64,000 nt of DNA, from the NCBI GenBank assembly GCA_023105745.1, contig JALGQZ010000004.1, positions 11,930,451 to 11,994,450 on the forward strand, in the 5' to 3' direction. Shown in pieces: positions 4,301 to 46,544 of the stretch; the stretch's first letter is position 1, and each line of letters starts with the position of its first letter. The notes below the pieces were generated by a model that saw only the letters and a list, made by a program, of their open reading frames with translations, ran no database searches and was not told the origin of the DNA. The stretch comes from Austropuccinia psidii (lineage: Eukaryota; Basidiomycota; Pucciniomycetes; Pucciniales; Sphaerophragmiaceae). The translations under genes were made by a program, and so were the position numbers.

Positions 4301-5957
4301 TTACCCCCATTTCTAGGAGTTCATTGATATGTTTCTCAATTTCTTTCCTAGTTTCCATGCTGGCTGGGTATGGTGGTCTCCTAAGCATAGGTGGATATGG
4401 TCTTTCTACATCCAGATATAATTCTATATCATGTCCTTTGATTTTTCCTAGTAGTTCATCTGCTATTGCAAAAGCTCCTCTATGCTTTCTCAATACTTTC
4501 AGTAAGCTGAGTTTCATTTTACTGGTGAGTTGAGTGCCATATTGGGCTTCTTTGAATTCTTCCACTAGTTCTTTCAAGGTGTTATCATTTGTTACATGAT
4601 TTATGTCAAAGGAAAATTTTTTGTCTTTCTTTGTACCTATGGTAATATATCTGTTTTTACTATTGCAAATATCCATACCATACATTCTTTGGTACTCTGT
4701 ACCTAGTAAGAATCCTTGTACATGTTCATTCTCTAGAACTACAAATTCAGGTTCCAGTCTGATATTTCCTTTGTGGTGTGGGATAATTATCTCTTTGATT
4801 ATTGTCCCCAGTGAGTGCATTTTGCCTGATGCACTTTTAAAGTTTCTAGCTTTTGTTGGGATTATATCTTCTTCCCATTTGGGGAAGTGTTGTTTCAAGT
4901 ATTCTTTTGCCACTATGGAGCAACTTGCTCCTGTGTCAATGATCATTGGGTGTTTACAGTTCTCAATATAAACTGTCAATTTTGTAGGTGTTCCATGAAT
5001 GAATCCCATCCCTCTATTGGGGGTTACAAGGAATGTTTGTGCATTCTGTGTGTGCTTACAGAGCTCTTTGTCTGTTGTTATTTGTGGTATTCCTGAATCC
5101 AATTCAATGTCTTGTATGTCAAGTGAACTTTCTTCATTGCATTCCACTATGTATTCTTCTATGGTATCAGGTTCACTTTGTGATTCTGCTCTCATACCAT
5201 TTCCCATGCTGTCAGAATCAGATTTTTCACATGTTTGTTCTTCTTCTGATTCTTCATCAATTGCATATATTTTCTTTTTTGGTTTTGTGCAATTGTTGGC
5301 ATAGTGGTCTGGTGATCCACAGTTGTGGCACACATATTTCTTTTTTGGGGTTTCTTTCCCTTTTTCTTTGTTTGTCTCTTTAACTTCAGACCTCTTGTCT
5401 TTGAAGTTTGGTTTATAGGATGTGTACCTTCCTATGGAGGTTTTTTTTCTCACATCTTGTATGACATTTGCTATGTCATCAATGCTGCTGATGTTGTTGC
5501 ATCTGCATTTGACTGCATGTTCTAGATCTCCTGGCAATTTTGTTAGGAGTTTATGGTTTCTCATTTCTATTGTCATATTGGGATCAATAGCTTTCAGCCT
5601 CTTTGTTTGTTTGAGGCACCATTCATAAGGGTCTTTTTCTGTGGAGTATCTATCACTTTCAAAGGACATGGTCTTTTGCCAGATCCAACTACCATTGCTA
5701 TACTTTTGTATAATCTGGTTCCTCCACCATGGCCAGCTTTTCCTGCCATGTATTTCTTTCATCTCAGTATACCATATGTTTGCATGGCCTCTGAATGCTG
5801 TGTTAAGTCTTGTTGTGATCCAGTAGTCTGGTATCTTTGGGACATCAACAAAGAGTCCATCAATATAGTCAATGATCTCCATATGGTCATATTCCCCAAT
5901 TCCTGAGAACTTTGGCCAGTTTGTTACTTCTGGTAACTGTTTTAGTGCCTGTTTCTC
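1334..5957 (-). pseudogene. Element A pol (protease-RT-RNase H-integrase-chromodomain), disrupted
   Basis: This is the downstream part of a single-frame Gag-Pol polyprotein. Seen in order on the minus strand: capsid-like segment (WPKFSG...DHMEIID), CCHC zinc knuckle [14 protein letters not shown] near 5289-5330, aspartic protease motif IDTGASCS near 4926-4937, reverse transcriptase YIDD at 3909-3920, RNase H ([25 protein letters not shown]), integrase HHCC zinc region and catalytic core ([23 protein letters not shown]). A C-terminal chromodomain-like segment ends at 1334. Three lesions are visible. TCA became TAA just after the 412-codon gag frame (5955-5957). GAA became TAA just below 2238, after the DPKFTS motif. 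A frameshift lies near 1990-2010 beside a run of T. The copy should not make a complete polyprotein. Confidence 0.9.
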
Positions 5958-7196
5958 TTAATAGTTGAGATTTTCCCCATCTTGGTACACTGACTCTGAT
6001 CTTAACTTTGGAATCTGATATTCAGGTTCCTGGTCATAGTCTTTATCCTCTTCTTTCAATTTTGTAGAGGTGGTAGGTTGACCTTGTGTTGGAGGGTATT
6101 GATTGTCTTCCCTGCCATAGAGGTAATCAATTTCTTTGTCAAAGCTATCCTGTTGCTGCTGGATACTCCTCAGATCCATCCTCACAGTTTGTTCTTCTTC
6201 TAGAATTGAATTCAACTGTCTGTTAGTTCTTTCAAATTCTGTCCAAATTTTGGCCAGATTTGTATTTAAGTCTTTTATGACTGTTGCTTGGAAAGCATTT
6301 TCTTCTTTCAATGTTTCCACTTCTGTCCTCATTTTTCCTGAGGTTTCATGTGTCCAATCCATGAATTGGGCCAGTTTGGTCCATGTGAATCTGTTTTCAA
6401 ACTCATGAGTGTGGATTGTAGTTTCAGTTATTAATTCTGGGTCTATTGAGTCAGAACTATCAAAACTATTTGTAGGTACAACTATTTCTTGCTTTTGTGT
6501 ACTTCTTGGACTAAGTCCATCAGCTTTTTCATCAATGGGTCTGCTTCCTTCTTCCTCTGGTTGAAAGAAGTTTTGTTTTTCCCTTGGGCTCCTTTTCTCC
6601 TGTTGGAAACTACCTGGAAGGGTTGGGGAGCCTTGGATGAAGTTTCCTTTGGCTTGTAGGGCCTGGAACTGCTGGATTGCTGTGGGGAAGATGGGACTTC
6701 TCCTTCCATTTCTGGGGGTACCTGAATCTGACTGGGCTCTTCCTTGTGCCAAGATCTCTCTATGGCTTGTATGGCTGCCTGGTTCTCTTTGATTCTGGTT
6801 GCTCTTTCTTCTAAGAGTTTGAAATTCTTGTTGGGATTCCAACCTTGCATTTCTGTCATAAGTTCCATCCAAGCCATTTGCTTGAGACAGATCTTCTGGG
6901 TTGTTATCCCCACTTCTGCCCATGATGCTGCCATAGTGAACATTTTGTTGTCCATGCTCCATGTGAAGAGGTCTCTCAGGAGTTTGTGTATTTGGAGGAC
7001 CTGTTCTGCATCTGTCCAATCTCCTGGTTGGACTTCTGGGTTGAATTTGATTTGGAATAAGACCTTGGGTAGGAGTTCCCTGATGGTAAGTCCTTTGCTG
7101 GTCATTTGCTCCAGTTCTTCTTCCTCTGTGTCTTCTTGGCCAGTGTTCTGGTTGATTTCTTGGGAATCCAAGATCTCTTAGAAGTGGAGGTGTCAT
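5958..7196 (-). CDS. gag: Element A Gag, N-terminal portion (412 codons)
   Basis: The ATG at 7196 opens a frame that in intact relatives continues into pol without a frameshift. Roughly the first 235 residues are Gln/Arg/Ser/Pro-rich, look disordered, and are encoded by the same DNA as the accessory frame ending at 6482. The remainder (from about residue 240) is helical and coiled-coil-like, as in Gag particle-forming regions, and ends at a TAA where relatives have a serine (YSEK). The start ATG lies inside a predicted 81-bp intron (7177-7257), so Gag can only come from RNA retaining that intron. No ribosomal frameshift signal is needed between gag and pol. Confidence 0.75.
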   Translation of the reverse strand: MTPPLLRDLGFPRNQPEHWPRRHRGRRTGANDQQRTYHQGTPTQGLIPNQIQPRSPTRRLDRCRTGPPNTQTPERPLHMEHGQQNVHYGSIMGRSGDNNPEDLSQANGLDGTYDRNARLESQQEFQTLRRKSNQNQREPGSHTSHREILAQGRAQSDSGTPRNGRRSPIFPTAIQQFQALQAKGNFIQGSPTLPGSFQQEKRSPREKQNFFQPEEEGSRPIDEKADGLSPRSTQKQEIVVPTNSFDSSDSIDPELITETTIHTHEFENRFTWTKLAQFMDWTHETSGKMRTEVETLKEENAFQATVIKDLNTNLAKIWTEFERTNRQLNSILEEEQTVRMDLRSIQQQQDSFDKEIDYLYGREDNQYPPTQGQPTTSTKLKEEDKDYDQEPEYQIPKLRSESVYQDGENLNY

Positions 7197-8320
7197 GTTA
7201 ACAATGTTAAAAAATGACAGACAATAAAAAATGTTGTATTTTTCAAGGTTTATTTACCTTTAGCAGGCCCTTGTACAAATTTATGATCTATACTCTTTGG
7301 CAATTTGCCTTTAGAGTTTACAACTGGGTTGATAACAGTGATTTTCTGTTTCTCAATTTGTTTTGGTGATCCAACTGGTTTTGTTGGAGCTTTTCTGGGT
7401 TTTTTGGCCCTTGGCACGGCTATTGGTGTCCAATCTTTTGAGTTGATTGTCACTTCACTGTGTCTTTTCTGCTTGCCCTTGGTTTTTGGCAGCACCTTTC
7501 TGTCTTCTGAGGCTGTCACAGATGGATTTCCTTGTGACTGGGTTTCTAATGGAATGTAGTCTTTTTCCACTATTCAGAAAAGATATTTCAGATTGTATAT
7601 CAGTATTTTATGATAAAACAAAATGATTATATTCAATTCTACTGTTATTTTTCAAAATTTTTAAGTATTTTATGTTGTTTTAATTATTTTTATATGTTTT
7701 TATTGAAAAATAACATTTTTTGAGTTTTTCACTTATGTTTTATAAATGAAAACTGTAATATCCAAGTGTTTTGTGAATGATTCACTTGGATATTATTGTG
7801 TTTTTGTATAAACACGTCAAATTTATTAAATTATAATAAATTTGATTTGTTATTATAAATATTATAAATAATATTTATTATAACACTTGATATTTGATTC
7901 AAATATCAATTAATTACAAGTTCTGACGTCAATTTGAGTGATATCTTGTTTTAAAGGAAATATTTAATTAAAATATTCCTTATAAATAATAAAAAATTAT
8001 TTTATTATTTAATATTTATTAATTATTTATTAATAAATGTTTCTATATTAATTTTCACGCACTTTGGTGAAAAATAATAGTAAAATAAATAATATACTGT
8101 TTGTATATTATTATTTATATTGAAATTTAAATAATACTGTTGTATTATTATTAAATTTCATGGAAATTATTGCAATATAATAAAAAGGAGGATTTGTACT
8201 CCTACTCTCAACAAAAATATTTTGTAATATATATTTTTGGAGGAAAACAATTTGTATATATAATATATGATGCTAAAAAAAATGATAATAATATAAAATA
8301 AATTTGAAATTTTACTCACT
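6482..8320 (-). CDS. Element A accessory protein, predicted from three exons, overlapping gag
   Basis: Predicted exons on the minus strand: exon 1 ending at 8320 (A), exon 2 7569-7258, exon 3 7176-6482. The start codon is split: A at 8320 plus TG at 7569-7568. Introns are 8319-7570 (GTGAGT...ATAG) and 7257-7177 (GTAAAT...TAAG). The joined frame is 336 codons including the stop, with no interruption. Residues 1-104 are Lys/Pro-rich and basic (PLETQSQ near the start, KGKLPK near the end). Exon 3 gives an acidic patch (EDTEEEELEQ), a helical Trp-containing region (LLRDLFTWSMDNKMF, KICLKQMAWMELM), a Ser/Lys linker and a short C-terminal helix (MKKLMDLVQEVHKSKK). It matches no family I know. A five-codon upstream ORF lies in exon 1. 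Coding status is supported by the same exon structure in B, C and D; splicing is inferred. Confidence 0.65.
7177..7257 (-). other. Predicted second intron of element A, containing the gag ATG
   Basis: Donor GTAAAT at 7257, branch-like TTAAC near 7200, acceptor CACTTCTAAG ending at 7177 (81 bp). Removal keeps phase 1 and joins exon 2 to the frame overlapping gag. The gag ATG (7196-7194) is inside the intron, so splicing would switch the product from Gag to the accessory protein. Confidence 0.55.
7570..8319 (-). other. Predicted leader intron of element A (750 bp)
   Basis: Donor GTGAGT at 8319-8314 and acceptor TTCTGAATAG ending at 7570. The intron is very AT-rich and contains several ATGs and stops. 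Removing it joins A to TG and creates the accessory start codon. The equivalent introns are 533 bp in B, 575 bp in D and 76 bp in C. Confidence 0.55.
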
Positions 8321-15106: not shown

Positions 15107-16780
15107 TCATTTATGAGACTGTTCAGTCCTTCTAGAGGCTCTGAATCTCCTTAGATGAAGGTTCCCATCTGGTATGGCATCTTCTGCTAACCATTTGTCT
15201 TCATCAGCTGTCTGGTGTTTGAATCTGACTAAGTATTGTCTTTGATCCTTCCCATTAAGTCTGATCTTCCTGGCCCTGATGATCTTACTCACAGGTCCTG
15301 GGGAGTCCTGCACTTCCACTATGTCAGGTGGTGTGTGGTTTTTCTTCCTGGAGGGGAATTTATCCTCCTCTGTTTGGAAGTATGGCTTGACCAAACTTTC
15401 TGGGAAGACTGGGTGCTTCCTGGAAAATTCCTCTGTAAGTTTGACTTCCACTGCATTCTTTCCTATCAACCTAATGATAGTGAAAGGCCCTACAAATGAG
15501 TCCCTCATCTTCTTGGGTCCTTTAAGATTGTTAAAGCTCAGTGTAGACACTAGCACCTGGTCCCCTTCCTTAAAGTCAGGTTCCATGTGTGTCTTGTCCC
15601 ACCTCTGCTTGTTATATTCTTTTGCCTCAGCTAAGCATTTGGCAGCTGTGTCACAAGCCCTTTTCCATATATCATGGAAGTCTTTGGCTGTGGGGTGGAT
15701 GGTTAGAAGATTCTTCTTCAAGTGAGCCACAGGCAACAGGGGATTCCACCCTTTCTCTACCACTGCAGGTGTTTTTCCTGTTGTAGAGTGCTGACTTGTA
15801 TTATAAGCCAGCTGGACAGCTGGTAGAAGAGTAACCCAGTCATGGGTGTATGCTTCATGGTCCTTGTATTCCATGCCATAGGCACAGAACCTCCTAAGGA
15901 TGTCTTCCATAGTCTGGATCATCCTCTCAGCTAGGCCATCTGTTTGGGGATGGTAAGCTGTGGAAAAAGCAAGCTTCATGCCAAGCATTACATACAAGTT
16001 GGTCCAAAATTCTGATGTGAATTTTGGGTCCCTATCACTAATAATGATTTTTGGGACTCCACAGGTAGATATGATGTTATTCCAAAATAACAGGGCAGTA
16101 TCCATGGCTGTGTCCTCCTTGTGGCATGGTAGACACCTCATGCTCTTGCTGAACCTATCAACTATTATTAGGCAGGCATTGTAGTTTTCTTTGCCTCCTG
16201 GGACAGGTCCTGTGACCCAGTCCATGTTGATGGTTTCCCATGGGTGCTTGGGTTCCTCTATGTGTTTAAGTAACCCATACTTCTTCCCATGTTTCCTGTT
16301 TGCCTTTTGGCATCTTTCACAGGTGTTGATGTATTCACTCAACTACTGCTCCCACTTGGGCCACCAAGCTGTGCTTGCTACTCTTTCTTTGGTCCTGTCT
16401 TCACTCATGTGTCCCATATAGGGGCATTCATGGCATTCCTGCAGGATCAATGAAATTTGGTCTCTGTCTACCACTGTGAGTGTACTTGTGTGCTTCACTC
16501 TGTGGTAGAGCAGGCCATCTATAAGGAAAAACTTGTTATCCTTATAGGCCCTCAACCAGGGTTCTTCCAGCTGGGCTTCCAGTTCTGGACTCCTGTATTT
16601 TTGTTGAAGGAGTTGTATTAGTATGCCACACTGTTTGTGTTTGGTATAATACTTCAGTACTGCACTGAAAAATTCATTGTGCAGCTCAGAGGAACTTATT
16701 CCCAATATTGGAGTTTCTGTCTCCTCTGAATCAGTGTTTCTACTGTCAGGGGTACCACTCTCTGGTGCCCATTCAGAAAA
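15107..16780 (-). pseudogene. Element B pol, C-terminal part (integrase and chromodomain)
   Basis: On the minus strand this runs from the insertion point of C (EWAPESG...) through the integrase zinc region ([13 protein letters not shown]), a stop at WEQ*LSEY near 16343-16345 (GAG-type codon to TAG), CERCQKAN, the catalytic motifs [14 protein letters not shown] and [12 protein letters not shown], and the integrase C-terminal region. A chromodomain-like segment follows (RQYLVRFK...DEDKWLAE), ending RTEQSHK at 15107. Apart from the one stop the 411-codon distal part is open. An open frame that appears to extend to 16822 reads into the C LTR; its first residues are not B protein. Confidence 0.9.
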
Positions 16781-17840
16781 TGTGAGCCTTAGAGGTAATT
16801 TCATATACCCAAAAGACCACAAATATAAAAAATAACATATTAATATAAATAAAATAAATTTATTTATATTATTAAAATAAAAATCAAAATATAAATATAA
16901 AATTATATTAAAAATAAAAAATTAATTATAATTTAAAAATAAAAAATACGTTAAATTTTGTAAATATAAAATTACATTTATACTTGAAAAAATTAAGTAA
17001 AAATGAAACTTTAACAAAATTGTGAGAAAATAAATAAATTTGGAAAAAAGTTAAATAAAAATCATTATAACTTTTTATCCAATAAATATACATATAAAAT
17101 TTATTTCACCATTGGATTCCTCATAAAAAATCAGGTGGGGTCACCTCTGAGTGAAATTCTTATAACTCAACTCTAAATAAGCTTAAATTAAGTTTTTAGT
17201 ATTTTCAATACAAAAAGTTGAAAATCCTCAAAACCTTAATTTAATTCACACCACATGTGGTGTTAACCATCAATTTTTGTGTTAAAATTGAGGTGTTGTG
17301 TTTAGTTTAGAAGTTATGAGGAATTGAAGTATTTTCAATTGAATTCAATTTAAATGTCAAAATGTGCGCGTGTATTACATAAGTGAACTTTGATTTACAT
17401 ATGAGGTGTCAATTATTACTGTATTGAACTGTACAATTGAATTGAATTACATATGTAAATTATAAGTATAATACATGATGAGGAATTAAAGGAAAAATAA
17501 ATTGGAAAGATTAAATTTGGGGGGGAAAAGGAACTCCAGCTCTAAGGGGGAGCTAGACCCCCAAAATCCTTGCTGACAGGCGTGGGATGTCAAAATTCAC
17601 GCAAAAGTTCATCACTTTTGGCCTGGAATTGAGTTACAGGGTCTGTGGACTCAATTGATGATGAGGTTTTGATACCAACTGGGGTAGTTTTAGCTGTTGC
17701 CAAGAGGGTAAAACTACCCTTAAGATAAAACAATCATAATAAAAACAGCTTTAACTGGTTTCTACGCCTCTGACACACATTCTGACGTGTTTTGAAGGCT
17801 CTAGGCCTGGTATTGCTATAGTAATGGCTGATTTAAGGGT

Positions 17841-17872
17841 CTAAAATGGCTAAAAATGGCTAAAAATGGCTT
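17841..17872 (+). repeat. Short tandem repeat, about 10-bp unit x3, in the C LTR
   Basis: Three tandem copies of a unit close to TAAAAATGGC, repeated in the other LTR at 26074-26105. It lies about 120 bp upstream of the TATA box and could be a protein-binding array. Function unknown. Confidence 0.6.
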
Positions 17873-17994
17873 AAACCAGCCCTTTTTGGTCTAAACCAGG
17901 GTTCAATGATGCCATAATTGGCTTTTCTGTTGTCAGACTGTTTTTCACGACTGACAAGAGTAAATTTTACTTTTGGAGTAAGAGAACTGATGGC

Positions 17995-18001
17995 TATAAA
18001 A
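17995..18001 (+). promoter_or_regulatory. TATA box of element C 5' LTR
   Basis: TATAAAA in the context GGCTATAAAAGAATG, also present in the 3' LTR at 26228-26234. Transcription would start a few tens of bases downstream, making 16781-about 18025 the U3 region. Confidence 0.6.
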
Positions 18002-18621
18002 GAATGTCTTCTTTGCCCCACTTTTCTCTTCATGTTAGAATCTTTTCCTTTTATTAATTAGTTTAAAACTGTTAAACCAATCAATCAAAGATTCCAACCA
18101 CCACTTTTAAATCATTTTAATCCTTTTAACCACGTGAAAAAATCATTATAATCATTGTTTGTAACTCTTATAATCATTTTTACCCCTGAACCACCCCAAA
18201 AGTGAATTAAAGCATCTTTCATCACTGTAAACTTTGTCACTTTGTTTCCAAATTCACTCTGGTCACTTTTGGGCGTGTTTTCTCTTTAATATTCTTTTTA
18301 AAGACTTTGTTCTTTAATTAATTGCTTGCAGTTCTTTGCTCAATTAATTCCAATTGAAATTGCTCTTGAAGAAATTTCTTTTGTAGCCTTAAAATATCTC
18401 TTGTAGAGTATTTTTTGGATAAATTTTTATTGTTGGTAAAACAATGAATTTTTATAATATTATTGTTTTATACTAATAAAGTTATAAACAATAAAATTGG
18501 CGTGTTTTCTCTTAAAAATAATATTTCATACTATTTTTAATTGATTTTTACCTTATACAAATTTTGAGGACAGGAAAAGTACTTGATTTTTAATCAAAGT
18601 TTCATATCCACACCTTACATT

Positions 18622-18639
18622 TGGGGGCCCAGCCGTGAT
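18622..18639 (+). other. Primer-binding site of element C
   Basis: TGGGGGCCCAGCCGTGAT begins two bases after the 5' LTR. It shares the TGGGGGCC start and the GCCGTG core with the A and B sites. The implied primer has discriminator C, consistent with a tRNA-Pro type (inference). Confidence 0.7.
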
Positions 18640-18764
18640 ATTTTACCTGTGACATATTTTTACTCTTTTTAAATCTTTTTTCTTATATTGAAAAATTTAA
18701 AAACATATAAAAAATACTTATAATTCAAAAAATCCATAAAAAATAACTTTTTTTCCATATTGTA

Positions 18765-19729
18765 AGTGAGGCTTATATTTTTATTTCTTTTTGAAATAAC
18801 CTTTTTTTTACTTAATTAATTGGCTTTTTCATTAATTTTAGTGTCTGACAACGTGGTAAGATAAGAAAACATTGAAACAGCCTCAACAGTAACCAGCATT
18901 ATCCCTGCCAGTACTGTTATTGTGACTCAAAATAACCAGCCTGAACCAATATCTTCTGAATTGATTAACTTGGACATAAGTAATACCCTTCAGAAAGCTA
19001 AAAATTTGGCCAATAGTAAGTTTTCTGACGTAAAAATACTATTTTAAGCCTTTTTAACCATAATTATGCCTTCAACCAGGTCAGGAGCCAGCTACAACCC
19101 CTCAAGCAGCTCCCAAAAAGGTAATAGACGTGATTATGGCAGAGGCCAACCAGGTACAGAAGGAAAAGGGTCAGTTGATGACTTCCAAACAACTAAAATG
19201 GGTCATTCTCAAGCTGATAATACCATTTTACCTTCAAAAAGAGCTGACACCACCACAACAAGCCTCTGTGGACATATACAAAGCCAGCCACAGTGCATAC
19301 AACAATGCACTTCAATTCAAAGAGTACCAGATCCTTGCAGACCTGTGGAAGAATTGCATGAATTCTTACCTGACAGTAAGAAAATTCTTGGGCCATCCCA
19401 ACACTTGCAAATTGCTCAATGGATGGCATCCATTAATGGAGAAGAAAAACATGATGCTTTTGACACTAGAATGGAGGAAAAACAACCCTCCACCACCCAA
19501 ACCAGTGCCAAAAACAGCCCCAGTGGCCAGCAGCAGCAATTCCAACGTGAAAAAGCAGCCACAAACTCCAAACAAGGGCAAAGGGAAGGCACCAGCCCCA
19601 AAACCTTACAGCCAGGGCTACAGAATCCCAAAGATTCAGCAGGATGCCATGGAAAATGTATTTCAGATGGCCAGAACCATGATGGAATTACAGAAGAAGG
19701 AGGAAGCCAGATTAAGGTTCCAGAAATGA
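18765..19729 (+). pseudogene. Element C accessory gene, three predicted exons, one premature stop
   Basis: Predicted structure: A at 18765, intron 18766-18841 (GTGAGG...TTTTAG), exon 2 18842-19015, intron 19016-19079 (GTAAGT...ACCAG), exon 3 19080-19729. The joined length is 825 nt, an exact multiple of three. The start is A|TG followed by TCT GAC. An in-frame TAA at 18862-18864 (codon 8) would stop it in this copy. An alternative donor GTAAGT at 18762 would give TTG instead of ATG. Exon 3 is open for about 216 codons overlapping gag. It contains a helical segment ([27 protein letters not shown]), a Pro/Lys/Ser-rich linker and a C-terminal charged helix ([20 protein letters not shown]). This layout parallels the A accessory protein although the sequences barely align. 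No known family recognised. Confidence 0.55.
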
Positions 19730-22700
19730 TTTCTGACATATTTGATTCCATCCCAGAGTTGTATAATGCTATAAATGACGTGAAAAAACATCTTTCTGAT
19801 AAAAATGACACCATTTGTAACAACATTAAAACAAACAACCTGAGTCTGTGCCAAATTAATGAAACACTTATGTGTTTTGAAAAAGTTTTAAGAACAATTA
19901 AAAATTCTAATAATGACAATTCTTTTAACATTAAAATAAATGAACAATCTGCCATTATTAAAGAATTAACAGATAAATATTCTAAATTCAATATTGATGA
20001 CATGATTGAAACAAGAATTAAACAAGCCATAAATATTATCAAAACAGATAACAAGAAAGTCCTTGATGACATTTCAAATTCATTTACTGAAGTAAAGACA
20101 TATACCATTGCCTTGAAAAAGTGTTTTGATGCTTCACAAGAAGAAGTATCAAAATTATCAATGAAATTGAATCAAGTCACTGCTGATAATACAAGACAGA
20201 CAGAGTTATGGCAAGAACTGACACATAAGGAAGACATGTATAAAATTGAAGTAATAAATTTAATACAAAGCTTCCAACATGAATACAGAAATTCCCAAAG
20301 GTGTAGCAACAGTAAAATGAATGACATTGAACAAATACTGAACACCTTACCAAGAATGTCTACACCTCTAAATCAAAATGAGGGCACAAGAATTCCAAAT
20401 CCACAAGTATTGGATCCTGATAATTCACAATTAAAAAATGAATTATCCACTTCTTTTCATAACTTGGAACCATCAATGGGCCAAGCACTCTTGAAAGAAG
20501 TTCCAAAACTTAAAGAATGGCCTCACTTCAGTGGTGAAGGAGAGTATGACCATATGGAATTCATTAGAGGTATTGACATGATCAAAGAGGATTTTGAATT
20601 ACCAGACAGATTGGTAACAGCCAGGTTTAACACCTTGTTTACCAGATCAGCTCACAGATGGTACATCAAAATAAGACAAGCACATGGACACCAGAGTTGG
20701 ACTTGGTGGAAAACCCAAATCATCAACAAATGGGCAAATGATGCTTGGAGGTTTAAAGTTGAAACAGCCTTTGAATCTGCCAAATTTAATTCTGATAAAG
20801 ACATAGCTTTACCATGGTTTTGCCAACAAAAGGACAGATTAACAGCATTATATCCTGACATGTCAGAGTTTATGATCCATAGAAAAATTCTGAGACAATG
20901 TGGAGGTGACTTAGAGCATGCTGTCAAAAGCAGGACTACTGAACAATCTTCAGCAGAAGATATTATCAATATACTAGAAGAAGTAACCACCAGAACCAAA
21001 ATTGGTTCTAGTAGGGTGAATCTCAAAACAAGGTTTAATACACCTTGGAAAGACTCTGTGGACAAAAACTCCAAAGAAAATTCTGGTAATATTAAATATA
21101 AATCTGCAGATACAGTCAGAAAATGCCATATTTGCCAAAGCACCACCCATTTAGCCAATACATGTCCAAAGAGGGGGAAAATCAATGAAATTGACATTGA
21201 AAAGGAACCAGATGTTGAAAAAGAAGACATAATTGAAGACAATTCAGATGATAAGTCATCCATATTTTCTGAATCTTCAAAAGATATAGAAAATATCAAT
21301 GCCACTTTTGACATCATGGAATCTTATTCCCACTTACCACAATTGAGCAATGGTCAAGTTGATTTATCAAAAGTTCAAGATGCACAACTTATGAAGACAA
21401 AACCAAACAGAGGAAAAGGTTATACAGCTGGTAACTCCTGTATAACAGAAGTGGTAATTGACAACAAGCGCACCAAACTTTTGCTTGACCCAGGAGCCTT
21501 CTGCTCTTGTGTTGGAAAATCCTTTCTTAAGACTTGTGTGCCAAATTTTGAAGACCAATTGTTACCAATTGATCGTATAAAATTCAACAGTGCAAGTAAC
21601 CCAATGAAAGCATTGGGAATCTTTGAGACCAATGTCATATTCCCACACATAAATGGGAATTTAAGGATCACAGTTGAATTTGTTGTTATGGAAAATTGCT
21701 CTAGTACCCATTTTATATTGGGAAATGACTATTTGATCATGTTTGGGATAGATTTACATAATAACAAGGACAGATACTTTACAATTGGGGACAATAAGCG
21801 CCAGAAATTTGCCTTTTTACCATTTAAAAGACAAATTACAGTAAACAAAGTATCACCAGTCAACTTAGAGTTAGAAAAATTCAAGTCTGAACAGTTGAAT
21901 GAGGCTGAGATAAGCCTTCATCTGACTGATAAACAAGAAAATGAACTTTCTTCCCTTTTGTATGACCACAAAGGAGCATTTGCTACAGACAAAGAACCTC
22001 TGGGAGCAATTATTGGTCATGAAGTTGACATCATTCTTAACATTGAGAGACCTTATCCACCACTCTTAAGAAGACCTGCTTATCCAGCAAGTCCAAAATC
22101 AAGAGAAGCTCTAGAAATTCATATCAAAGAACTTCTAGACCTTGGTGTAATAAGAAAAGTAGGCCACAATGAGGAAGTAGAAATAACTACACCAGTCATA
22201 GTGGCGTGGCATAATGGAAAATCCAGAATGGTTGGGGACTTTAGAGCTCTGAACACTTACACTGTTCCAGACAGATACCCAATACCAAAAATCCAAATTG
22301 CCCTTACTCAAATATCTCAAGCAGTGTATATAACCACTATGGATGCCCTTAAAGGATTCCATCAAAATGTGGTAACACCAAGAGCAAGAAAATACTTGAG
22401 AATTATTGTTCATTGTGGAGTGTATGAATACTTAAGGATGCCCTTTGGTATCAAAAATGCACCTTCACACTTCCAAAAGATGATGAATGAAATCTTCCCT
22501 GAAGAACTCTCAGAGGGATGGTTAATCATTTACATTGATGACATTATTATCTGTTCAAAGACTTGGGAGGAGCACATGTACAGATTATCAAGAGGTTTGA
22601 CAAAAATCCAATCAGTAAACATGAAAATCTCCTTGAAGAAATGTCATTTTGGATTTAAAGAACTTAAGGCACTAGGACATGTTGTATCTGGTTTGTCCCT

Positions 22701-24990
22701 TGGAATTGATAAAAACAAAGTTGCAGCAGTATTGTTAAAACCCATGCCTCAGAATAAGAAGGAAATTCAGTCATTCTTGGGTTTTGCAGGATATTACAGG
22801 CAACACATTAAAGACTTTGCATCCATAGCAAGACCACTTTATAAGTTGTGTGACAAAGACACAGTATTTGAGATGACTGTTGACAGAGTCAAAGCTTTTG
22901 AATCTCTAAGAGAAGCATTGACCACTGCTCCACTCTTACTGATGCCAGACTTTAAATTACCTTTCAAACTGTATATTGATGCATCAGGGGATGGACTAGG
23001 TGCTGCACTTCACCAAGTTCAGATCATAAATGACAAACCTGTAGAAGGACCAATATGTTTCATATCCAGCCAAATCAAACCAACTGAAGCCAGATATGGA
23101 GCAAGTCAAATGGAATGTCTATGCCTTGTCTGGGCCTTGGAGAAATTGAACTATTTCTTAGAGGGATGTGTTTTTGAAGTAATAACAGATTGTACAGCTG
23201 TGAAATCACTTTTGAACATGAAAACACCTAACAGACACATGCTCAGATGGCAAATAGCCATACAAGAATACAGAGGCAATATGACTATTGTTCATAAGGA
23301 TGGGAATATTCATAAGAATGCAGATGGACTAAGCAGATGGCCATTACCAAATAACATTGATAATCCTGCTTATGTTCCAGAAGAAGCTTCACCACAAATT
23401 CCAATAGAAGGAATAAGTGTTATAGACTTGAACACCACCTTCTTTGAAGAATTCAGAAATAGTTACACTCAAGATAAGAATTGTAGCATCTTATGCCAAT
23501 TACTTAACAAAGACTGTAAAGACAACTCTCTAATACATGCCTTGGATGAAGTATGGAGAAAATCTTATAATGAAGGAAGATTTCACCTACTGGATGGTAT
23601 AATTTACCACAGAACCAAGCACACATGTGTCATGACAGTTGTAGACAGGTCATTAATCAATCTTGTACTAAAAGAATGCCATGATAGTCCCTTTTCAGGA
23701 CATCTTTCTGAAGACAGAACAAGAGAGAAAGTGAAGACCTGCATATGGTGGCCAATGTGGCAAAAAGATGTTGCAGAATATTGCAAAACCTGTGACAGAT
23801 GCCAAAAGGCAAATAAATCCACTGGCAAAAGACTTGGAAATATGATGAAAATCCAAGAACCAAACAGACCTTGGGAAATTGTCCATATGGATTGGGTAAC
23901 TGGCCTACCACCAGGAGGTGACAGGAGCTATAATGCTTGCCTAGTAATTGTGGACAGATTCAGTAAAACTCCAATCTTTTTACCATGTCACAAAGATGAT
24001 ACAGCCATGGATACAGCTCTTCTGATATGGAATAGAGTAGTGTCATGGACTGGGATATTTACAAATATCATCAGTGATAGAGATCCCAAATTCACTTCAG
24101 CACTATGGACAAATCTTCACCAATTATTTGGCACTAAACTGTCTTTCTCTACAGCCTACCACCCACAAACTGATGGCCTGGCTGAAAGAATGATCCAAAC
24201 CTTAGAGGACATGGTGAGAAGATTTTGTGCATATGGCCTTGAATTCAAAGATTGTGATGGATTTACCCATGATTGGCGTACTCTGTTACCAGCACTGGAA
24301 TTAGCATATAAAACATCAATCCATGCTAGTACCAATCAGACTCCTGCTGTTCTAGAAAAAGGATGGAACCCCAAGTTACCCCAAGACTCCTTGAGGAAAG
24401 ACTTAATTGAAATACATCCCACAGCTGCTAGCTTCAAAGGAATGCTAGACAAAGCTAGAAAGCATGCAGTAAGGTGCATGGAGGACTCTTTTGCATATGC
24501 TAAAGACAAATGGGATAAATCTCATGCAACTCCAGATTTCAAAGTGGGGGACCTAGTCCTTGTATTCACCACTAAATTCAATAACATCAAAGGATGTAAA
24601 AAGTTGAAAGACTCCTTTGCAGGACCTTTTGTGATTAAGGCCCTCCATGGAGAAAATGCTGTTGAAGTAGAGTTATCTGGAGAACTTAGCAATAAGCACC
24701 CTACATTTCCAGTGAGCTTGATAAAACCATATAAATCTACTGATGCTGAGAAATTTCCCTTGAGGAATAAGGTTCCCCAAGTTATACCTCCTATTGAGAC
24801 ATCTGGTACTAAGAAAATAACCAAAGTTCTTAAAGAAAGGAAATTAAGAACCAAGAAAGTAAGGGAATACCTTGTTAGGTACAGTGACCCAACTTGTGAA
24901 GATGAATGGTTAGAAGAAAAAGATATACCAGAAGCTACCAAACTCCTGAGGAGATTCAGACACACTAGAAACACCAATATTACAAAGTAA
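19066..24990 (+). CDS. gag-pol: Element C Gag-Pol polyprotein (1974 aa), apparently intact
   Basis: One continuous frame encodes all structural and enzymatic parts, with no gag/pol frameshift. Residues 1-221 are Gln/Ser/Thr-rich and share DNA with the accessory frame. Residues about 225-420 look coiled-coil, and about 479-650 are capsid-like ([15 protein letters not shown]). The zinc knuckle [14 protein letters not shown] starts at residue 687. The protease motif is LDPGAFCSC with Asp808, having Pro where Thr or Ser is usual. Reverse transcriptase has YIDD at 1156-1159. RNase H has its first Asp near 1305. Integrase has a zinc region near 1540-1585 and the catalytic triad Asp1609, Asp1671, Glu1707 (D-35-E spacing for the last pair). 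A chromodomain-like end lies near 1915-1970. The start ATG sits within the predicted intron 19016-19079 and is the first ATG after the primer-binding site. Confidence 0.95.
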
Positions 24991-25001
24991 TATTCTTTTT
25001 T

Positions 25002-25013
25002 AGGGGGAGGGAA
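25002..25013 (+). other. Polypurine tract of element C
   Basis: AGGGGGAGGGAA directly before the 3' LTR, preceded by a T-run. Element F has a counterpart on the minus strand at about 50126-50145. Confidence 0.8.
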
Positions 25014-26852
25014 TGTGAGCCTTAGAGGTAATTTCATATACCCAAAAGACCACAAATATAAAAAATAACATATTAATATAAATAAAATAAATTTATTTAT
25101 ATTATTAAAATAAAAATCCAAATATAAATATAAAATTATATTAAAAATAAAAAATTAATTATAATTTAAAAATAAAAAATACATTAAATTTTGTAAATAT
25201 GAAATTACATTTATACTTGAAAAAATTAAGTAAAAATGAAACTTTAACAAAATTGTGAGAAAATAAATAAATTTGGAAAAAAGTTAAATAAAAATTACTA
25301 TAAATTTTTATCCAATAAATAAACATATAAAATTTATTTCACCATTGGATTCCTCATAAAAAATCAGGTGGGGTCACCTCTGAGTGAAATTCTTATAGCT
25401 CAACTCTAAATAAGCTTAAATTAAGTTTTTAGTATTTTCAATACAAAAAGTTGAAAATCCTCAAAACCTTAATTTAATTCACACCACATGTGGTGTTAAC
25501 CATCAATTTTTGTGTTAAAATTGAGGTGTTGTGTTTAGTTTAGAAGTTATGAGGAATTGAAGTATTTTCAATTGAATTCAATTGAAATGTCAAAATGTGC
25601 GCGTGTATTACATAAGTGAACTTTGATTTACATATGAGGTGTCAATTATTACTTTATTGAACTGTACAATTGAATTGAATTACATATGTAAATTATAAGT
25701 ATAATACATGATGAGGAATTAAAGGAAAAATAAATTGGAAAGATTAAATTTGGGGGGGAAAAGGAACTCCAGCTCTAAGGGGGAGCTAGACCCCCAAAAT
25801 CCTTGCTGACAGGCGTGGGATGTCAAAATTCACGCAAAAGTTCATCACTTTTGGCCTGGAATTGAGTTACAGGGTCTGTGGACTCAATTGATGATGAGGG
25901 TTTGATACCAACTGGGGTAGTTTTAGCTGTTGCCAAGAGGGTAAAACTACCCTTAAGATAAAGCAATCATAATAAAAACAGTTTTAACTGGTTTCTACGC
26001 CTCTGACACACATTCTCACGTGTTTTGAAGGCTCTAGGCCTGGTATTGCTATAGTAATGGCTGATTTAAGGGTCTAAAATGGCTAAAAATGGCTAAAAAT
26101 GGCTTAAACCAGCCCTTTTTGGTCTAAACCAGGGTTCAATGATGCCATAATTGGCTTTTCTGTTGTCAGACTGTTTTTCACGACTGAAAAGAGTAAATTT
26201 TACTTTTGGAGTAAGAGAATTGATGGCTATAAAAGAATGTCTTCTTTGCCCCACTTTTCTCTTCATGTTAGAATCTTTTCCTTTTATTAATTAGTTTAAA
26301 ACTGTTAAACCAATCAATCAAAGATTCCAACCACCACTTTTAAATCACTTTAATCCTTTTAACCACGTGAAAAAATCATTATAATCATTGTTTGTAACTC
26401 TTATAATCATTTTTACCCCTGAACCACCCCAAAAGTGAATTAAAGCATCTTTCATCACTGTAAACTTTGTCACTTTGTTTCCAAATTCACTCTGGTCACT
26501 TTTGGGCGTGTTTTCTCTTTAATATTATTTTTAAAGACTTTGTTCTTTAATTAATTGCTTGCAGTTCTTTGCTCAATTAATTCCAATTGAAATTGCTCTT
26601 GAAGAAATTTCTTTTGTAGCCTTAAAATATCTCTTGTAGAGTATTTTTTGGATAAATTTTTATTGTTGGTAAAACAATAAATTTTTATAATATTATTGTT
26701 TTATACTAATAAAGTTATAAACAATAAAATTGGCGTGTTTTCTCCTAAAAATAATATTTCATACTATTTTTAATTGATTTTTACCTTATACAAATTTTGA
26801 GGACAGGAAAAGTACTTGATTTTTAATCAAAGTTTCATATCCACACCTTACA
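25014..26852 (+). repeat. Element C 3' LTR (1839 bp)
   Basis: The copy of 16781-18619, with identical length and about 1 percent divergence by eye. The right edge CTTACA is followed by GAAAA and the resumption of element B pol (minus strand FRFS). Confidence 0.96.
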
Positions 26853-29061: not shown

Positions 29062-31040
29062 CTAAACAGAATCCTCTGTTGGAGGTTCTTCCTCAGGGAC
29101 TTTCTCTATGGCATAGACTTTTTTCTTTGCCTTTGGACAGTTGTTGGCATAGTGGTCTGTTGAACCACAATTGTGACAAGAATTCCCCTTCTTTGCCACT
29201 TCTGCCACTCTTTCTTTGGGTTTGTCTTTAAACTCTACCCTGAAAGGTTCTTTCTCTCTGAAACTACTGCTCTTATATGGGGTGAATTTCCCTATATTAG
29301 TCCTTTTCCTTATGTCTTGTAAGGTGTTGGCGATGTCATCTAGAGTGCAGCTTTGGTTGCATCTGCATTTTACTGCATCCTCTAGTTCTCCTGGCAATTG
29401 TGTCAGAAGTTTGTGATTCCTCATTTGGATGTTCATCTGCTGATCAATGGCTTTAAGTCTTTTAGACTGTCTAAGACACCACTCATATGGATCTTTGTCC
29501 ACAGAGTATTTGTCATTTTAAAATGACATTGTCTTTTGCCATATCCAAGTTACATTACTGTACTTTTGGATGATTTGACTCTTCCACCATGGCCAGTTTC
29601 TCCTGCCATGGATTTCTTTCATTTCTGTGTACCATATACTAGCATGACCTTTAAATGCAGTATTCAGTCTAGCAGTGATCCAGTAGTCTGGTATGCTTGG
29701 TACATCAATGAAGAGTCCATCAATATAATCTATGAGCTCCATATGATCATATTCTCCTAATCCAGAGAATTTGGGCCAACTTGAGGCCTCAGGAAGCTTT
29801 TTCAAGGCTTCCTTCTCTGAATAAGACATTCCATCTCCATCTTGGTATTGTGATGGAGATCTTGCCTTATTCATCAAAATGGCATCTGGTTTGATGTCAT
29901 CTGGTTGGTATGGAATATCCATAACTTGGCCTTGTGGTTGAGGCTTCAAGCTATGGTAGGCATTAAACAACTTGTTAATGTCTTGATCCAGACATTTCCT
30001 GTCCCTTGTGCTGTGGTGTTGTTCTTCAAGGACTATATTCAGTCTTTTTTTGGTTTCTTCAGAGGCTTTGCTCAGTTGAGCATATCCTTCTTGAAGATTT
30101 TTAACTATCTTTTCCAAGGAGGCTTGAGTTTGTCTCATCCTCTCTTGGCCAGCTTTAATTTCTGCAAACTGCTTTGCAGATTTTTCAGCATAATGGGACA
30201 TTTGTAACCACAGTGTATCACTGTTGATGTTACTCTCAGATGTGACAGTGTTATTTTCAGTCTGAGTGGGGGTAATGTTTCTATTTTACAAGGACTACTG
30301 ATTCTAGAGTGGTTTACAACTACTTCTGGGTCTTGTGTACTTCTTTTACCAAATCTAACAGCTTCTGGATCATGGGGTCTGACTCTTTCCTCCTCTGGTT
30401 GAAGGAGGCTTTGTTCTTGCCCTTGTTTCCTTGTCTTCTCCTGGAAACTTCCTGGAATTGTGAATAATGGTGACTCTTGGCCACTGATCTGCTGGTTTCT
30501 GAATGGTGTGAAGCCACTGGAGAGCTTATTTGGCCTGCTCCTTGTGAGCCTGAAGGAATCTGAGTAGGCCCTGTCTGCGTTAACTGTTCTTCTATACCTT
30601 GGTTAATGGCTTGGTTCTCCCTTATCCTCAGTTCCCTTGCCTCCAGGAGTCTGAACTTCCTGGTAGAATTCCAACCTTTGGTGATTACCATCAGGTCTTT
30701 GAAGTCTATCTCTTTGAGACAGATCTTCTGGCAACTTGCTCCAAGTTCTGCGCAGTGACTTGCCAGGTTGAACCTCTTGTTGTCCATGCTCCATTGAAAT
30801 AAGTCTTTGAGGAGTTGGTGGAGCTGAAGAAATTGATCCATATCCTTCCAGTCCTCTGGTTTGAGGTTCCTGTTGAATTAGAGTGTGAATGGCAAGGTTG
30901 ATATTATCTCCCTCATTGTTTTGCCATCCACCACTGTGTCCAAAGTGTCTTCTTGAAGGTCTTCTGGTTCTGGACAAGCTTTCTCTGTCCTCTGGTTGGT
31001 TCCTTTGGAGGCCAAGGTCTCTGAGGTATGCAGGGGACAT
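29062..31040 (-). pseudogene. Element B gag, disrupted
   Basis: The ATG at 31040 (inside the predicted intron 31021-31088) opens the Gag frame with the same start as D (MSP..LRDLG). Segments follow at 31040-30603, 30201-29518 and 29502-29062. The first part is Gln/Arg-rich and overlaps the accessory frame; the next is coiled-coil-like; then comes a capsid-like segment (WPKFSGLGEYDHMELID) and a CCHC knuckle (CHNCGSTDHYANNC). Lesions are a frameshift near 30600, GAA to TAA after KTMSF near 29515-29517, and a small deletion/frameshift near 29062. Confidence 0.85.
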
Positions 31041-31922
31041 ATCAGTGTTTGCAAGCAGTAAAGAACTTTATGTTCTTAGGGTATTCACCTTTGACTGTGC
31101 CTTGTACAAATTTGTTATCTGCTGATTTGGGCAGTTTGCCTTTGGAGGTTACAACGGGGTTAATAATTGTAATATTCCCTGTACAAGTGGTTAAGGTTGG
31201 TTTACCTTGTATTGAAGCAGAGTTTTGTGGTTTTCTACTCCTCTGAGTGGCTATTGGTGTCCACGTTTTGGCTTAAATGAGGCCTTCACTAAGTCTTTTT
31301 CCTTTGCCCTTGCTGCCCTCTGGTTCTGAGGGTGTCACTGGTGTGTTGGACTGTGACTGCGTCTCAAGTGGTATGAAATTTTCTTCCACTGAATCAAACA
31401 GGAAAAGAGGGCTTATGTCAGTTAAGACTTCTTAAAAGGCTGGTTTTGCACATCTAAGAATGGCCTCTGGGCTTGTATATTATCACAATATTCCCTTGTA
31501 TTATGACAGTGTAATTGAATTAACAATTCCACATCAAAAATACAGCTTACTGATATGTGGTATACTGTTTGTATACCAATATCTTACAGAATACTTGTAA
31601 TTAGCAAGTATAATATGTCAAAGATGGTGTATTACAGGGCAATTGAGTTTACAATGTGCCCAAACACGCCTCAACTGTTGGTTTATCAGTATGAGCTGTC
31701 TTGATTCAATTAAGAATTAAGACTGTATCAGTGGCTTAAAAGTGGTTTTATATACAAAACACGCCAAAAATACTGGTCTTGTGGTTATCAGCCACATGAC
31801 AGATACTCTTTAAAATATGAGTATTTTAAAAAATAAATAAAAATATATATTTTTTAGAGAAAATGACTCCTAAAAAGATAAAACAAGTGTCAATAAAATG
31901 ATAAAAAAGAGAAAAACTTACT
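30320..31922 (-). pseudogene. Element B accessory gene, three predicted exons, two nonsense mutations
   Basis: Same structure as in A: A at 31922, intron 31921-31389 (GTAAGT...TTCAG), exon 2 31388-31089, intron 31088-31021 (GTGAAT...CTCAG), exon 3 31020-30320. Exon 2 begins EENFIPLETQSQ and has a TAA at codon 39 (31275-31273). Exon 3 has a TAA at 30880-30878. From 30841 to 30320 it is open, with HQLLKDLFQWSMDNKRF, KICLKEIDFKDLM and the C-terminal MIQKLLDLVKEVHKTQK, each clearly alignable to A. The phase across both junctions agrees with A, which supports the splice model although this copy is dead. Confidence 0.6.
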
Positions 31923-44901: not shown

Positions 44902-46544
44902 AGTGAGTTTTTTTCTCTTATTATCCTATTCCTGATGTTATTGTTTCTTTTTTAGGTGTAATTTTATTAAAAAAGAAACTATAATATATATCTTATATTC
45001 ATTTTTTGAGTGGTACATGTTATATACCACTGTGTTTTTATTTTTTGATTGCCTTGTTGCATGGTTGATTATAATTTAATCACCACAAAACCTTTATTTT
45101 TGGTGTGTTTTACTTATTAAAACACTTTAAGCCATCAATATTGTCCTTGTTAAATTATTAAGGACACCCGTATTACTGTAAACCAAAATTATTAGAGGCA
45201 TGGTTGGGTATATTGATAATTTCAATTGCCCTTTACATAACCACTTTTAGATTATACTTGTTAATTACAAGTTAATCTGTGAGATACTTGTATAAAAACA
45301 GTGTGCCGGAAATCCATAAGGTGTATTTCTGATGTGTAATTGTTAATTTCAATTGCACAGTCACAATACAAGGGCATAATATAGAAATATATTTCCCAGA
45401 GGCCATTCTTAGACATGCAAACAGCATTATAAGAAGTCTTAACTGACAATAAGCCCTCTTTTCCCTGTTTGATTCAGTGGAAGGAAACTTCATACCACTT
45501 GAAACCCAGTCACAGGCCAACACAGCAGTGACACCCTCAGAACCAGAGGGAAGAAAGGGAAAGGAAGGAGGCACAGTGAAGGCCTTATCACAGCTGAAAG
45601 TGGACACCAATTGCCTCCCAGAGGAGTAGAAAACCATTAAAATTTGCATCAATACAAGGTAAACAAACCTTAATCACTTGTACAGGGAAAATTACAATAA
45701 TCAACCCAGTTGTAACCTCTAAAGGCAAATTTCTCAAAGAAGTAGACAATAAATTTGTACAAGGAACAGTCAAAGGTAAATACCCTAAGAACATTAAGTT
45801 GTTGACTGCTTGAAAACACTGATATGTCACCTGTACAGCTCAGAGACCTTGGCATCCCAAGGAACCAGCCCGAGGACAGAGAAGGCTTTTCCAGAACCAA
45901 AAGATCTGGAAGAGGACACCTTGGAAACCATGGTGGATGGCAAGAAATTGAGGGAAATCATACCCGCTCTGCCATTAACTTTCCAATTCACCATAAACAT
46001 CCAACCAAATGACTGGAAGGATATGGATCAACTTATTCAGCTCCACCAACTCCTCAAAGACCTCTTTCAATGGAGCATGGACAACAAGAGGTTCCACCTA
46101 GCATCCCACTGGGAAGAGCTTGGAGCAATTTTCCAGAAGATATGTCTCAAAGAGATATAATTCAAAGACTTTATGGAAATCACCAAAGGTTGGAATCCCA
46201 GCAGGGAGTTCATAATTCTGGAGGAGAGGGAAACCAGGATAAAGGAGAATCAAGCCACTATCCAAGCTATAGAAGAATAGCTGACCCAGACAGGGCATAC
46301 TCAGATTCCTTCAGGCTCACAAGTAGTAGACCAAACCAGCTCTCCAGTGGCTTCACACCATTCAGGAACCAACAGATCAGTGACCAAGAGTCACCATTCT
46401 TCACAATACCAGGTACTTTCCAGGAGAAGACAAGGATACAAGGGCAAAAACAAGAACTCTTTCAACCAAAGGCAGAGAGAGTCAGACCCAATAATCCAGA
46501 AGCTGTTGGACTTGGTGAAAGAAGTGCACAAAGGCCAGAAATAG
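44902..46544 (+). pseudogene. Element D accessory gene, predicted three exons, decayed
   Basis: A at 44902, intron 44903-45477 (GTGAGT...TTCAG), exon 2 45478-45775, intron 45776-45843 (GTAAAT...CTCAG), exon 3 45844-46544. The joined start is A|TG GAA GGA AAC. Exon 2 begins EGNFIPLETQSQ but has a frameshift and stops. Exon 3 is open to 46160 (LASQGTSPRTEKAF, LHQLLKDLFQWSMDNKRF, KICLKEI), then stops, with the rest recognisable to IIQKLLDLVKEVHKGQK at 46544. All four splice signals sit at the positions seen in B. Confidence 0.55.

What the first reader, a model, noticed from the sequence alone, without database searches (positions are those of the whole stretch)
18766..19729. gag ATG lies inside an intron; its removal opens a second frame overlapping gag
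In all four elements a short GT...AG interval (A 81 bp, B 68 bp, C 64 bp, D 68 bp) contains the gag start codon. Removing it joins the upstream exon, in the correct phase in A, B and C, to a roughly 200-230-codon frame overlapping the 5' part of gag in a different frame. Total lengths are exact multiples of three in A (1008 nt) and C (825 nt). Intron retention gives Gag-Pol and splicing gives an unrelated protein, so one switch would control genome packaging versus accessory expression. D fits at the splice sites but its exon 2 carries an indel.
Basis: partly seen in the sequence, partly recalled or inferred. Interest (0 to 1): 0.93.

Follow-up and report, generated by a model that had tools for sequence, protein, structure and literature searches.

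The report
Spliced hidden gene inside retrotransposon gag
Abundant jumping genes of the myrtle-rust fungus appear to carry a second, hidden protein that can be read only after two introns are cut out of their RNA, one of which holds the start signal of the ordinary coat protein, so cutting or not cutting would decide which protein is made.

Summary
All four Ty3-type elements have a GT...AG interval (81, 68, 64, 68 nt) holding the gag ATG; removing it puts an upstream exon in phase with a frame overlapping gag. A further upstream intron has a donor ending in A and an acceptor leaving TG in all four, so the overlapping protein's AUG would itself be made by splicing. In the window only A is open throughout (335 aa); B and C have stops, D an indel and stops. 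Genome copies: 28 of 30 C-type and 20 of 20 A-type (window A included) are open from split AUG to stop. The upstream exon, outside gag and outside my query, varies synonymously in the spliced frame only (P 0.0003, 0.009). Among A, B and D the overlapping protein is constrained, while gag over the same DNA is merely kept open. The protein is basic and matches no known family. Closest precedent: CERV of C. elegans Cer1, from a spliced mRNA, needed for export of unspliced RNA. I infer a similar regulator. No RNA or protein data were available: splicing and function are inferred.

The parts
16779..26852 (+). LTR retrotransposon C, LTRs 16779-18619 and 25012-26852 (98.9% identical), single gag-pol frame 19066-24990 (1974 aa)
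18620..18765 (+). C leader, end of exon 1; ends in A; a GGGGGCC motif at 18623 marks the presumed primer-binding region (inferred)
18766..18841 (+). C intron 1 (76 nt), GTGAGG...TTTTAG; joining gives A|TG
   Evidence: same donor with last base A in 30 of 30 fetched copies, 75-79 nt in 31 copies
18842..19015 (+). C exon 2 (174 nt; 198 nt in most fetched copies); stop at codon 8 in this copy
19016..19079 (+). C intron 2 (64 nt), GTAAGT...CCAG, contains gag ATG 19066
19080..19729 (+). C exon 3 (650 nt): overlapping frame with stop, on the 5' part of gag
   Evidence: 627 homologues at E<=0.001
7570..8319 (-). A intron 1 (750 nt), AAAA|GTGAGT...AATAG|TG
   Evidence: donor with last base A in 18 of 20 copies
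7258..7569 (-). A exon 2 (312 nt)
7177..7257 (-). A intron 2 (81 nt) with gag ATG 7196
6482..7176 (-). A exon 3 (695 nt); spliced frame open, 335 aa in all
31389..31921 (-). B intron 1 (533 nt), TCAA|GTAAGT...TTCAG|TG
31089..31388 (-). B exon 2 (300 nt; stop at codon 39 of the spliced frame)
31021..31088 (-). B intron 2 (68 nt) with gag ATG 31040
30320..31020 (-). B exon 3 (stop at codon 148 of the spliced frame)
44903..45477 (+). D intron 1 (575 nt), ATAA|GTGAGT...TTCAG|TG
45478..45775 (+). D exon 2 (298 nt, frame broken by indel)
45776..45843 (+). D intron 2 (68 nt) with gag ATG 45824
45844..46544 (+). D exon 3 (two stops in the overlapping frame)

Best explanation
These Ty3-type LTR retrotransposons of Austropuccinia psidii carry a three-exon accessory gene laid across the 5' part of gag. 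Full-length RNA keeps both introns, has the gag AUG (inside intron 2), and is the template for Gag-Pol and for reverse transcription. A spliced RNA joins the leader (ending in A) to exon 2 (starting with TG), so splicing makes the start codon; it also loses the gag AUG with intron 2 and encodes a basic protein of about 275-335 aa whose C-terminal two thirds or more are read from gag DNA in another frame. Shown by comparison: conserved splice sites, the coding nature of exon 2 and of exon 3 in the spliced frame, and no detectable amino-acid constraint on the overlapping gag segment among A, B and D. Inferred: that the RNA is spliced in vivo, that translation starts at the AUG formed at the exon 1-2 junction, and the function. 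Most likely function (about 35-40%): a regulator of the element's own RNA of the CERV or Rev type, which lets intron-containing genomic RNA leave the nucleus. The confidence given is for the spliced accessory gene, not for its function.
For: Four of four window elements have both introns, donor 1 ends in A and acceptor 1 leaves TG, and the gag ATG is the only ATG in intron 2 (A corrected). 28 of 30 C-type and 20 of 20 A-type copies are open from split AUG to stop. Intron lengths vary off the triplet (75-79, 63-66; 81-82) while exon 2 is 174 or 198 nt in 30 of 31 C-type copies and 312 nt in 20 of 20 A-type copies. Exon 2 variants: 17 of 29 synonymous against 8.4 expected in C, all 11 shared by three or more copies synonymous, other two frames 8 and 1 of 29; 18 of 41 against 10.4 in A. 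Overlapping protein more conserved than chance among A, B, D while the gag frame is not. Independent MF-1 gene models make the exact intron 2 join: 19 of 31 C-type models that contain exon 2 and 27 of 47 A/B/D-type (hand counts). Precedent: CERV.
Against: No RNA or protein evidence was available. Window C, B and D cannot make the full product. L006 and L019 are broken. Donor 1 is missing at the expected place in 2 of 20 A-type copies. Intron 1 is long (533-750 nt) in A, B and D, where other acceptors may be used. Some MF-1 models retain the intron or use other sites. Copies were chosen by an intact exon 3. The search for intron-less copies did not complete. The function rests on analogy and charge alone; the structure models are weak.
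Confidence: 0.82

Rival explanations
1. No splicing: exon 2 is an upstream ORF that controls gag, and the overlapping protein is made from unspliced RNA by internal or leaky initiation at a Met inside exon 3.
For: Exon 3 contains in-frame Met codons, and several MF-1 models start there.
Against: In unspliced RNA exon 2 has no AUG in A or C. Its codons are under amino-acid constraint, it joins exon 3 in phase in A, B and C, and intron lengths vary off the triplet without harming the joined frame.
Confidence: 0.08
2. Both introns are spliced but the protein is a structural or targeting factor (particle, chromatin targeting) or a silencing suppressor rather than an RNA export regulator.
For: Basic protein with helices and a low-complexity linker; no family match decides its role.
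Against: Expression only from spliced RNA resembles CERV and retroviral regulators more than particle proteins (inference).
Confidence: 0.4
3. Artefact: the overlapping frame is a by-product of gag codon usage and the intron a gene-prediction artefact.
For: Retroelement gene models in draft genomes are often wrong (recalled); several MF-1 models join other sites.
Against: The overlapping frame is more conserved than gag over the same DNA, and exon 2, which is not gag, shows synonymous excess in the spliced frame alone.
Confidence: 0.04

Closest known systems
CERV of Cer1, a C. elegans Ty3-type element (PMC10309623; abstract and passages seen)
   Same: Accessory protein from a spliced mRNA of an LTR element, one exon read in a frame other than gag's; no homology to known proteins; needed for export of unspliced RNA, whose splice sites remain usable.
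   Different: CERV has five exons; [quoted passage not shown] Here the gene lies upstream of and on the 5' part of gag, the gag AUG is inside an intron, and the AUG is split. No sequence comparison with CERV was made.
BARE1 of barley (PMC3735527, passages) and EVD of Arabidopsis (PMC8892269, passages)
   Same: Splicing decides which protein an LTR element RNA gives; unspliced EVD RNA stays mostly nuclear.
   Different: There the spliced RNA makes Gag; here splicing removes the gag AUG and gives a different protein.
sORF1 and sORF2 of Drosophila MDG1-group elements (PMC11952523, abstract and one section)
   Same: Small accessory proteins encoded 5' of gag in Ty3-type elements, with purifying selection reported.
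   Different: The full-length transcripts showed no evidence of splicing there, and these ORFs are upstream of gag rather than overlapping it.
Additional ORFs of plant elements (PMC7264820, passages) and ORF3s of rotifer elements (PMC5408684, passages)
   Same: Extra ORFs beyond gag and pol, some from spliced messages.
   Different: The spliced ones in the passages seen are env-like or ORF3s after pol; none of the passages describes an overlap with gag.
Complex retroviruses with spliced regulators such as Rev and Rex (recalled)
   Same: Regulator from spliced RNA that acts on unspliced RNA.
   Different: No homology tested beyond Pfam and PDB searches, which gave none.

Membership tests
Ty3-type LTR retrotransposon | Two LTRs with gag-pol between them | tested here: met
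   C: LTRs 98.9% identical, one 1974-aa frame between
Ty3-type LTR retrotransposon | Order protease, RT, RNase H, integrase | tested here: met
   Pfam on A pol 2241-5882: zinc knuckle, protease (weak), RVT_1, RNase H, H2C2, rve in that order. C's pol was not scanned; it resembles B and A at DNA level
CERV-type accessory gene | Protein from a spliced mRNA of an LTR element, part of it in a frame other than gag's | tested here: inconclusive
   Frame, splice sites and coding constraint met by comparison; no RNA evidence
CERV-type accessory gene | Nuclear protein required for export of unspliced RNA | not testable with these tools
   Only a basic charge (pI 9.5 and 9.7) and analogy
CERV-type accessory gene | Sequence homology to CERV | not tested
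   CERV sequence was not fetched; the protein searches listed only A. psidii (top 120 of 627 and of 1162; 13 of 13)
'No apical meristem-associated' family (UniRef label on some hits) | Pfam match to that domain | tested here: not met
   Not found in 8 proteins, six of them so labelled
One common family of C-type and A/B/D-type overlapping proteins | Detectable sequence homology | tested here: inconclusive
   hhalign probability under 1% in both comparisons; same order of helices, linker and last helix in two low-confidence models

The most novel reading that the evidence does not exclude
A fungal counterpart of complex-retrovirus gene regulation: a Ty3-type element family, very abundant in a 1-Gb rust genome, controls the fate of its RNA with an accessory regulator whose start codon exists only after splicing, and the gag N-terminus is a passenger frame laid over that older, conserved gene. 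It would be independent of Rev, Rex and CERV and could have helped these elements multiply.
Probability: 0.3. Interest if true: 0.86.

Novelty: new variant of a known kind. Interest (0 to 1): 0.7.

Why it matters
Intron-containing genomic RNA must leave the nucleus unspliced, and how fungal LTR elements manage this is, to my knowledge (recalled), open. A conserved spliced gene that competes with gag for the same RNA makes that testable. It would also show that hundreds of 'hypothetical proteins' in the A. psidii annotation are one kind of retroelement gene, and it turns the usual view of the overlap round: among A, B and D the hidden frame is the conserved one, and gag's first 220 or so residues are the loosely constrained one.

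Tried and rejected
Homology to known families: Pfam (nothing above a curated cut-off for the overlapping protein, best member E 0.0049), PDB sequences (one chance-level hit, E 0.67) and a fold search of the A model (best E 0.61) gave nothing usable. The two models have mean pLDDT 46 and 48; I use only their helix order. The UniRef name 'No apical meristem-associated' was not reproduced. Homology of C-type and A-type proteins was not detectable.

Intron-less (retro-processed) genome copies would have been direct evidence of splicing. That pattern search did not complete (24 tries), nor was one for the exon 1-2 junction (105) or a query with P0131 (120).

Results against my reading: C, B and D of the window are broken; 2 of 30 C-type copies are broken; 2 of 20 A-type copies lack donor 1 at the expected place; of six control frames (leader and intron 1, three each) the lowest P was 0.051, in the leader. 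Exon 3 patterns within the fetched copies are biased by the query, which was the exon 3 protein, and are not used as evidence; the A-B-D comparison is free of that bias.

Full report
WHAT THE WINDOW HOLDS. The window lies in a genome of 1.015 Gb in 84 contigs (G000:C4:11930451-11994450). Protein matches point to Austropuccinia psidii, the myrtle rust: every listed hit is from strain MF-1 (120 of 627 listed, 13 of 13, 120 of 1162 listed). It holds nested Ty3-type LTR retrotransposons. Element C (+ strand) has LTRs 16779-18619 and 25012-26852, 98.9% identical, and one gag-pol frame of 1974 aa from ATG 19066. A and B (- strand) and D (+ strand) are of a related type: B and C are about 67% alike at DNA level over 1.3 kb of pol.

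OBSERVATION. The GT...AG interval with the gag ATG is present in all four elements with exactly the stated lengths, and the gag ATG is its only ATG. Leaving it out puts exon 2 in phase with the overlapping frame in A, B and C.

A SECOND INTRON MAKES THE START CODON. Exon 2 has no in-frame ATG of its own in A or C. In all four elements it starts right after an AG with TG, and a good donor with a final A lies in the leader, downstream of a GGGGGCC motif that I take for the primer-binding region: A AAAA|GTGAGT (8319), B TCAA|GTAAGT (31921), C GTAA|GTGAGG (18766), D ATAA|GTGAGT (44903) (A's exon 2 start is corrected by one base). Joining them gives A|TG. At least 14 MF-1 models of both types begin, without a Met, at what would be the second codon, as expected if the predictor placed the acceptor there and found no start. 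In C there is no ATG between donor 1 and the gag ATG.

COPIES. I fetched 30 C-type copies by the exon 3 protein (39,981 loose candidates, 150 scored and listed). All 30 have donor 1 TTATAA|GTGAGG, an exon 2 that starts TG and reads MSDN after the split AUG, and donor 2 AATA|GTAAGT. The spliced frame is open to the normal stop in 28 (26 of 282 aa, 2 of 274 aa); L006 and L019 are broken, and window copy C stops at codon 8. The gag frame is open for at least 720 codons in 25 of 30. In 31 copies (window included) intron 1 is 75-79 nt, intron 2 63-66 nt, exon 2 198 nt (27), 174 (3) or 197 (1), and exon 3 650 nt in all. Three of the 30 (L003, L005, L019) have a second ATG in intron 2. Of 20 A-type copies (19 fetched plus the window copy) all have exon 2 of 312 nt, intron 2 of 81 (18) or 82 nt (2), and a spliced frame of 335 aa. 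Donor 1 with final A stands 708-780 nt upstream in 18 of 20; L044 and L050 lack it. In 12 of these 20 the gag frame has a stop within the stretch read, so many are old copies.

SELECTION. Exon 2 precedes the gag ATG, so a gag-only reading gives no reason to preserve codons there, and it was not in my query. C type: 17 of 29 variants are synonymous in the spliced frame against 8.4 (sd 2.3) expected, P 0.0002 and 0.0003 in two runs; 11 of 11 variants shared by three or more copies are synonymous; the two other frames give 8 and 1 of 29. Controls (leader and intron 1, three frames each): P 0.051 to 0.96, the lowest in one leader frame. A type: 18 of 41 against 10.4 (sd 2.7), P 0.009; of those shared by two or more copies 8 of 9; the other frames are below expectation. 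Caveat: copies with an intact exon 3 are likelier to have an intact exon 2. Exon 3 patterns in these copies are biased by the query and not used.

WHICH FRAME IS CONSERVED. A, B and D lie in the window and were not picked by similarity to the overlapping frame. In exon 3 the overlapping protein is 46% identical (A-B and A-D) against 33% (sd about 2) when the same substitutions are scattered at random, and 74% against 68% for B-D (sd 1.8). The gag frame gives 34%, 36% and 65% against 33%, 34% and 68%: no amino-acid constraint is detected, though it is kept open (1 stop against 5.4 to 7.9 expected). The overlapping frame of the decayed copies has 1 (B) and 2 (D) stops. Over this stretch gag behaves like an open spacer and the hidden frame like the gene.

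INDEPENDENT GENE MODELS. Of 120 listed C-type homologues, 32 were flagged as carrying the exon 2 frame; one (P0001) was a false match, and of the remaining 31, 19 make the exact join (hand count). Of 128 proteins of the A/B/D type, 47 carry exon 2 sequence; 27 make the exact join, 4 join elsewhere, and for 16 my printout shows no junction (hand count). I do not know whether those models used RNA reads.

THE PROTEIN. 335 aa, pI 9.5 (A) and 282 aa, pI 9.7 (copy L001): an exon 2 part rich in polar residues, a helical middle, a basic linker and a final helix. The models of the C and A exon 3 parts show the same order of helices but mean pLDDT of only 46 and 48. Sequence comparison does not show the C-type and A-type proteins to be related; the common gene plan is the argument for common origin. 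No family or structure matched usefully. Because only the top 120 hits are listed, presence in other rusts is open.

MECHANISM. Shown by comparison: splice sites, phase, coding. Inferred: unspliced RNA gives Gag-Pol and is the genome (all 50 fetched loci keep intron 2); a spliced fraction gives the accessory protein. For function the closest precedent is CERV of Cer1, a nuclear protein from a spliced mRNA, with one exon in a frame other than gag's, required for export of the unspliced RNA (PMC10309623, abstract and passages). EVD shows that unspliced retrotransposon RNA can be mostly nuclear (PMC8892269, passages). A basic protein made only from spliced RNA fits a feedback regulator of export, at about 35-40%; silencing suppression, targeting or particle roles remain.

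KNOWN OR NEW. Spliced accessory genes of LTR elements are known (CERV; env-like or ORF3 genes of plant and rotifer elements, passages; BARE1 and EVD splice for Gag). I found no description of this arrangement (gag AUG inside an intron, split accessory AUG, overlap with the 5' part of gag) or of this protein in paper searches, which cover open-licence papers only; term look-ups in one rust transposon paper and one A. psidii genome paper show no 'gag' and no 'splic' in the main text. Hence: new variant of a known kind.

Noticed in passing
5958-5960 (- strand), element A: The window copy of A has an in-frame stop in gag just before the capsid region; 14 of 19 other A-type copies read through that place, and the other 5 stop earlier.
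   Followed up: partly
L003/L005; L027/L029/L030; G000:C1:69860895-69886269: C-type copies spaced 8.23-8.26 kb apart, the LTR-to-LTR spacing of C in the window (8233): probable tandem copies that share LTRs.
   Followed up: no
19170-19241 (exon 3 of C): Several MF-1 models skip a 72-nt (24-codon) in-frame stretch that starts with GT and ends with AG: a possible optional third intron.
   Followed up: no
about 31870-31921 (- strand), 44903-44956, 8270-8319 (- strand): In B, D and A a pyrimidine-rich TTTTTAG follows donor 1 within about 50 nt, a possible alternative acceptor inside the long intron 1.
   Followed up: no
50262-54920 (- strand): A C-like element, about 70% DNA identity with C in pol, without a recognisable gag 5' part in the window.
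   Followed up: no
genome-wide: At least 149 further genome places match C's exon 3 protein at 99-100% (150 listed including the window): a recent burst.
   Followed up: partly
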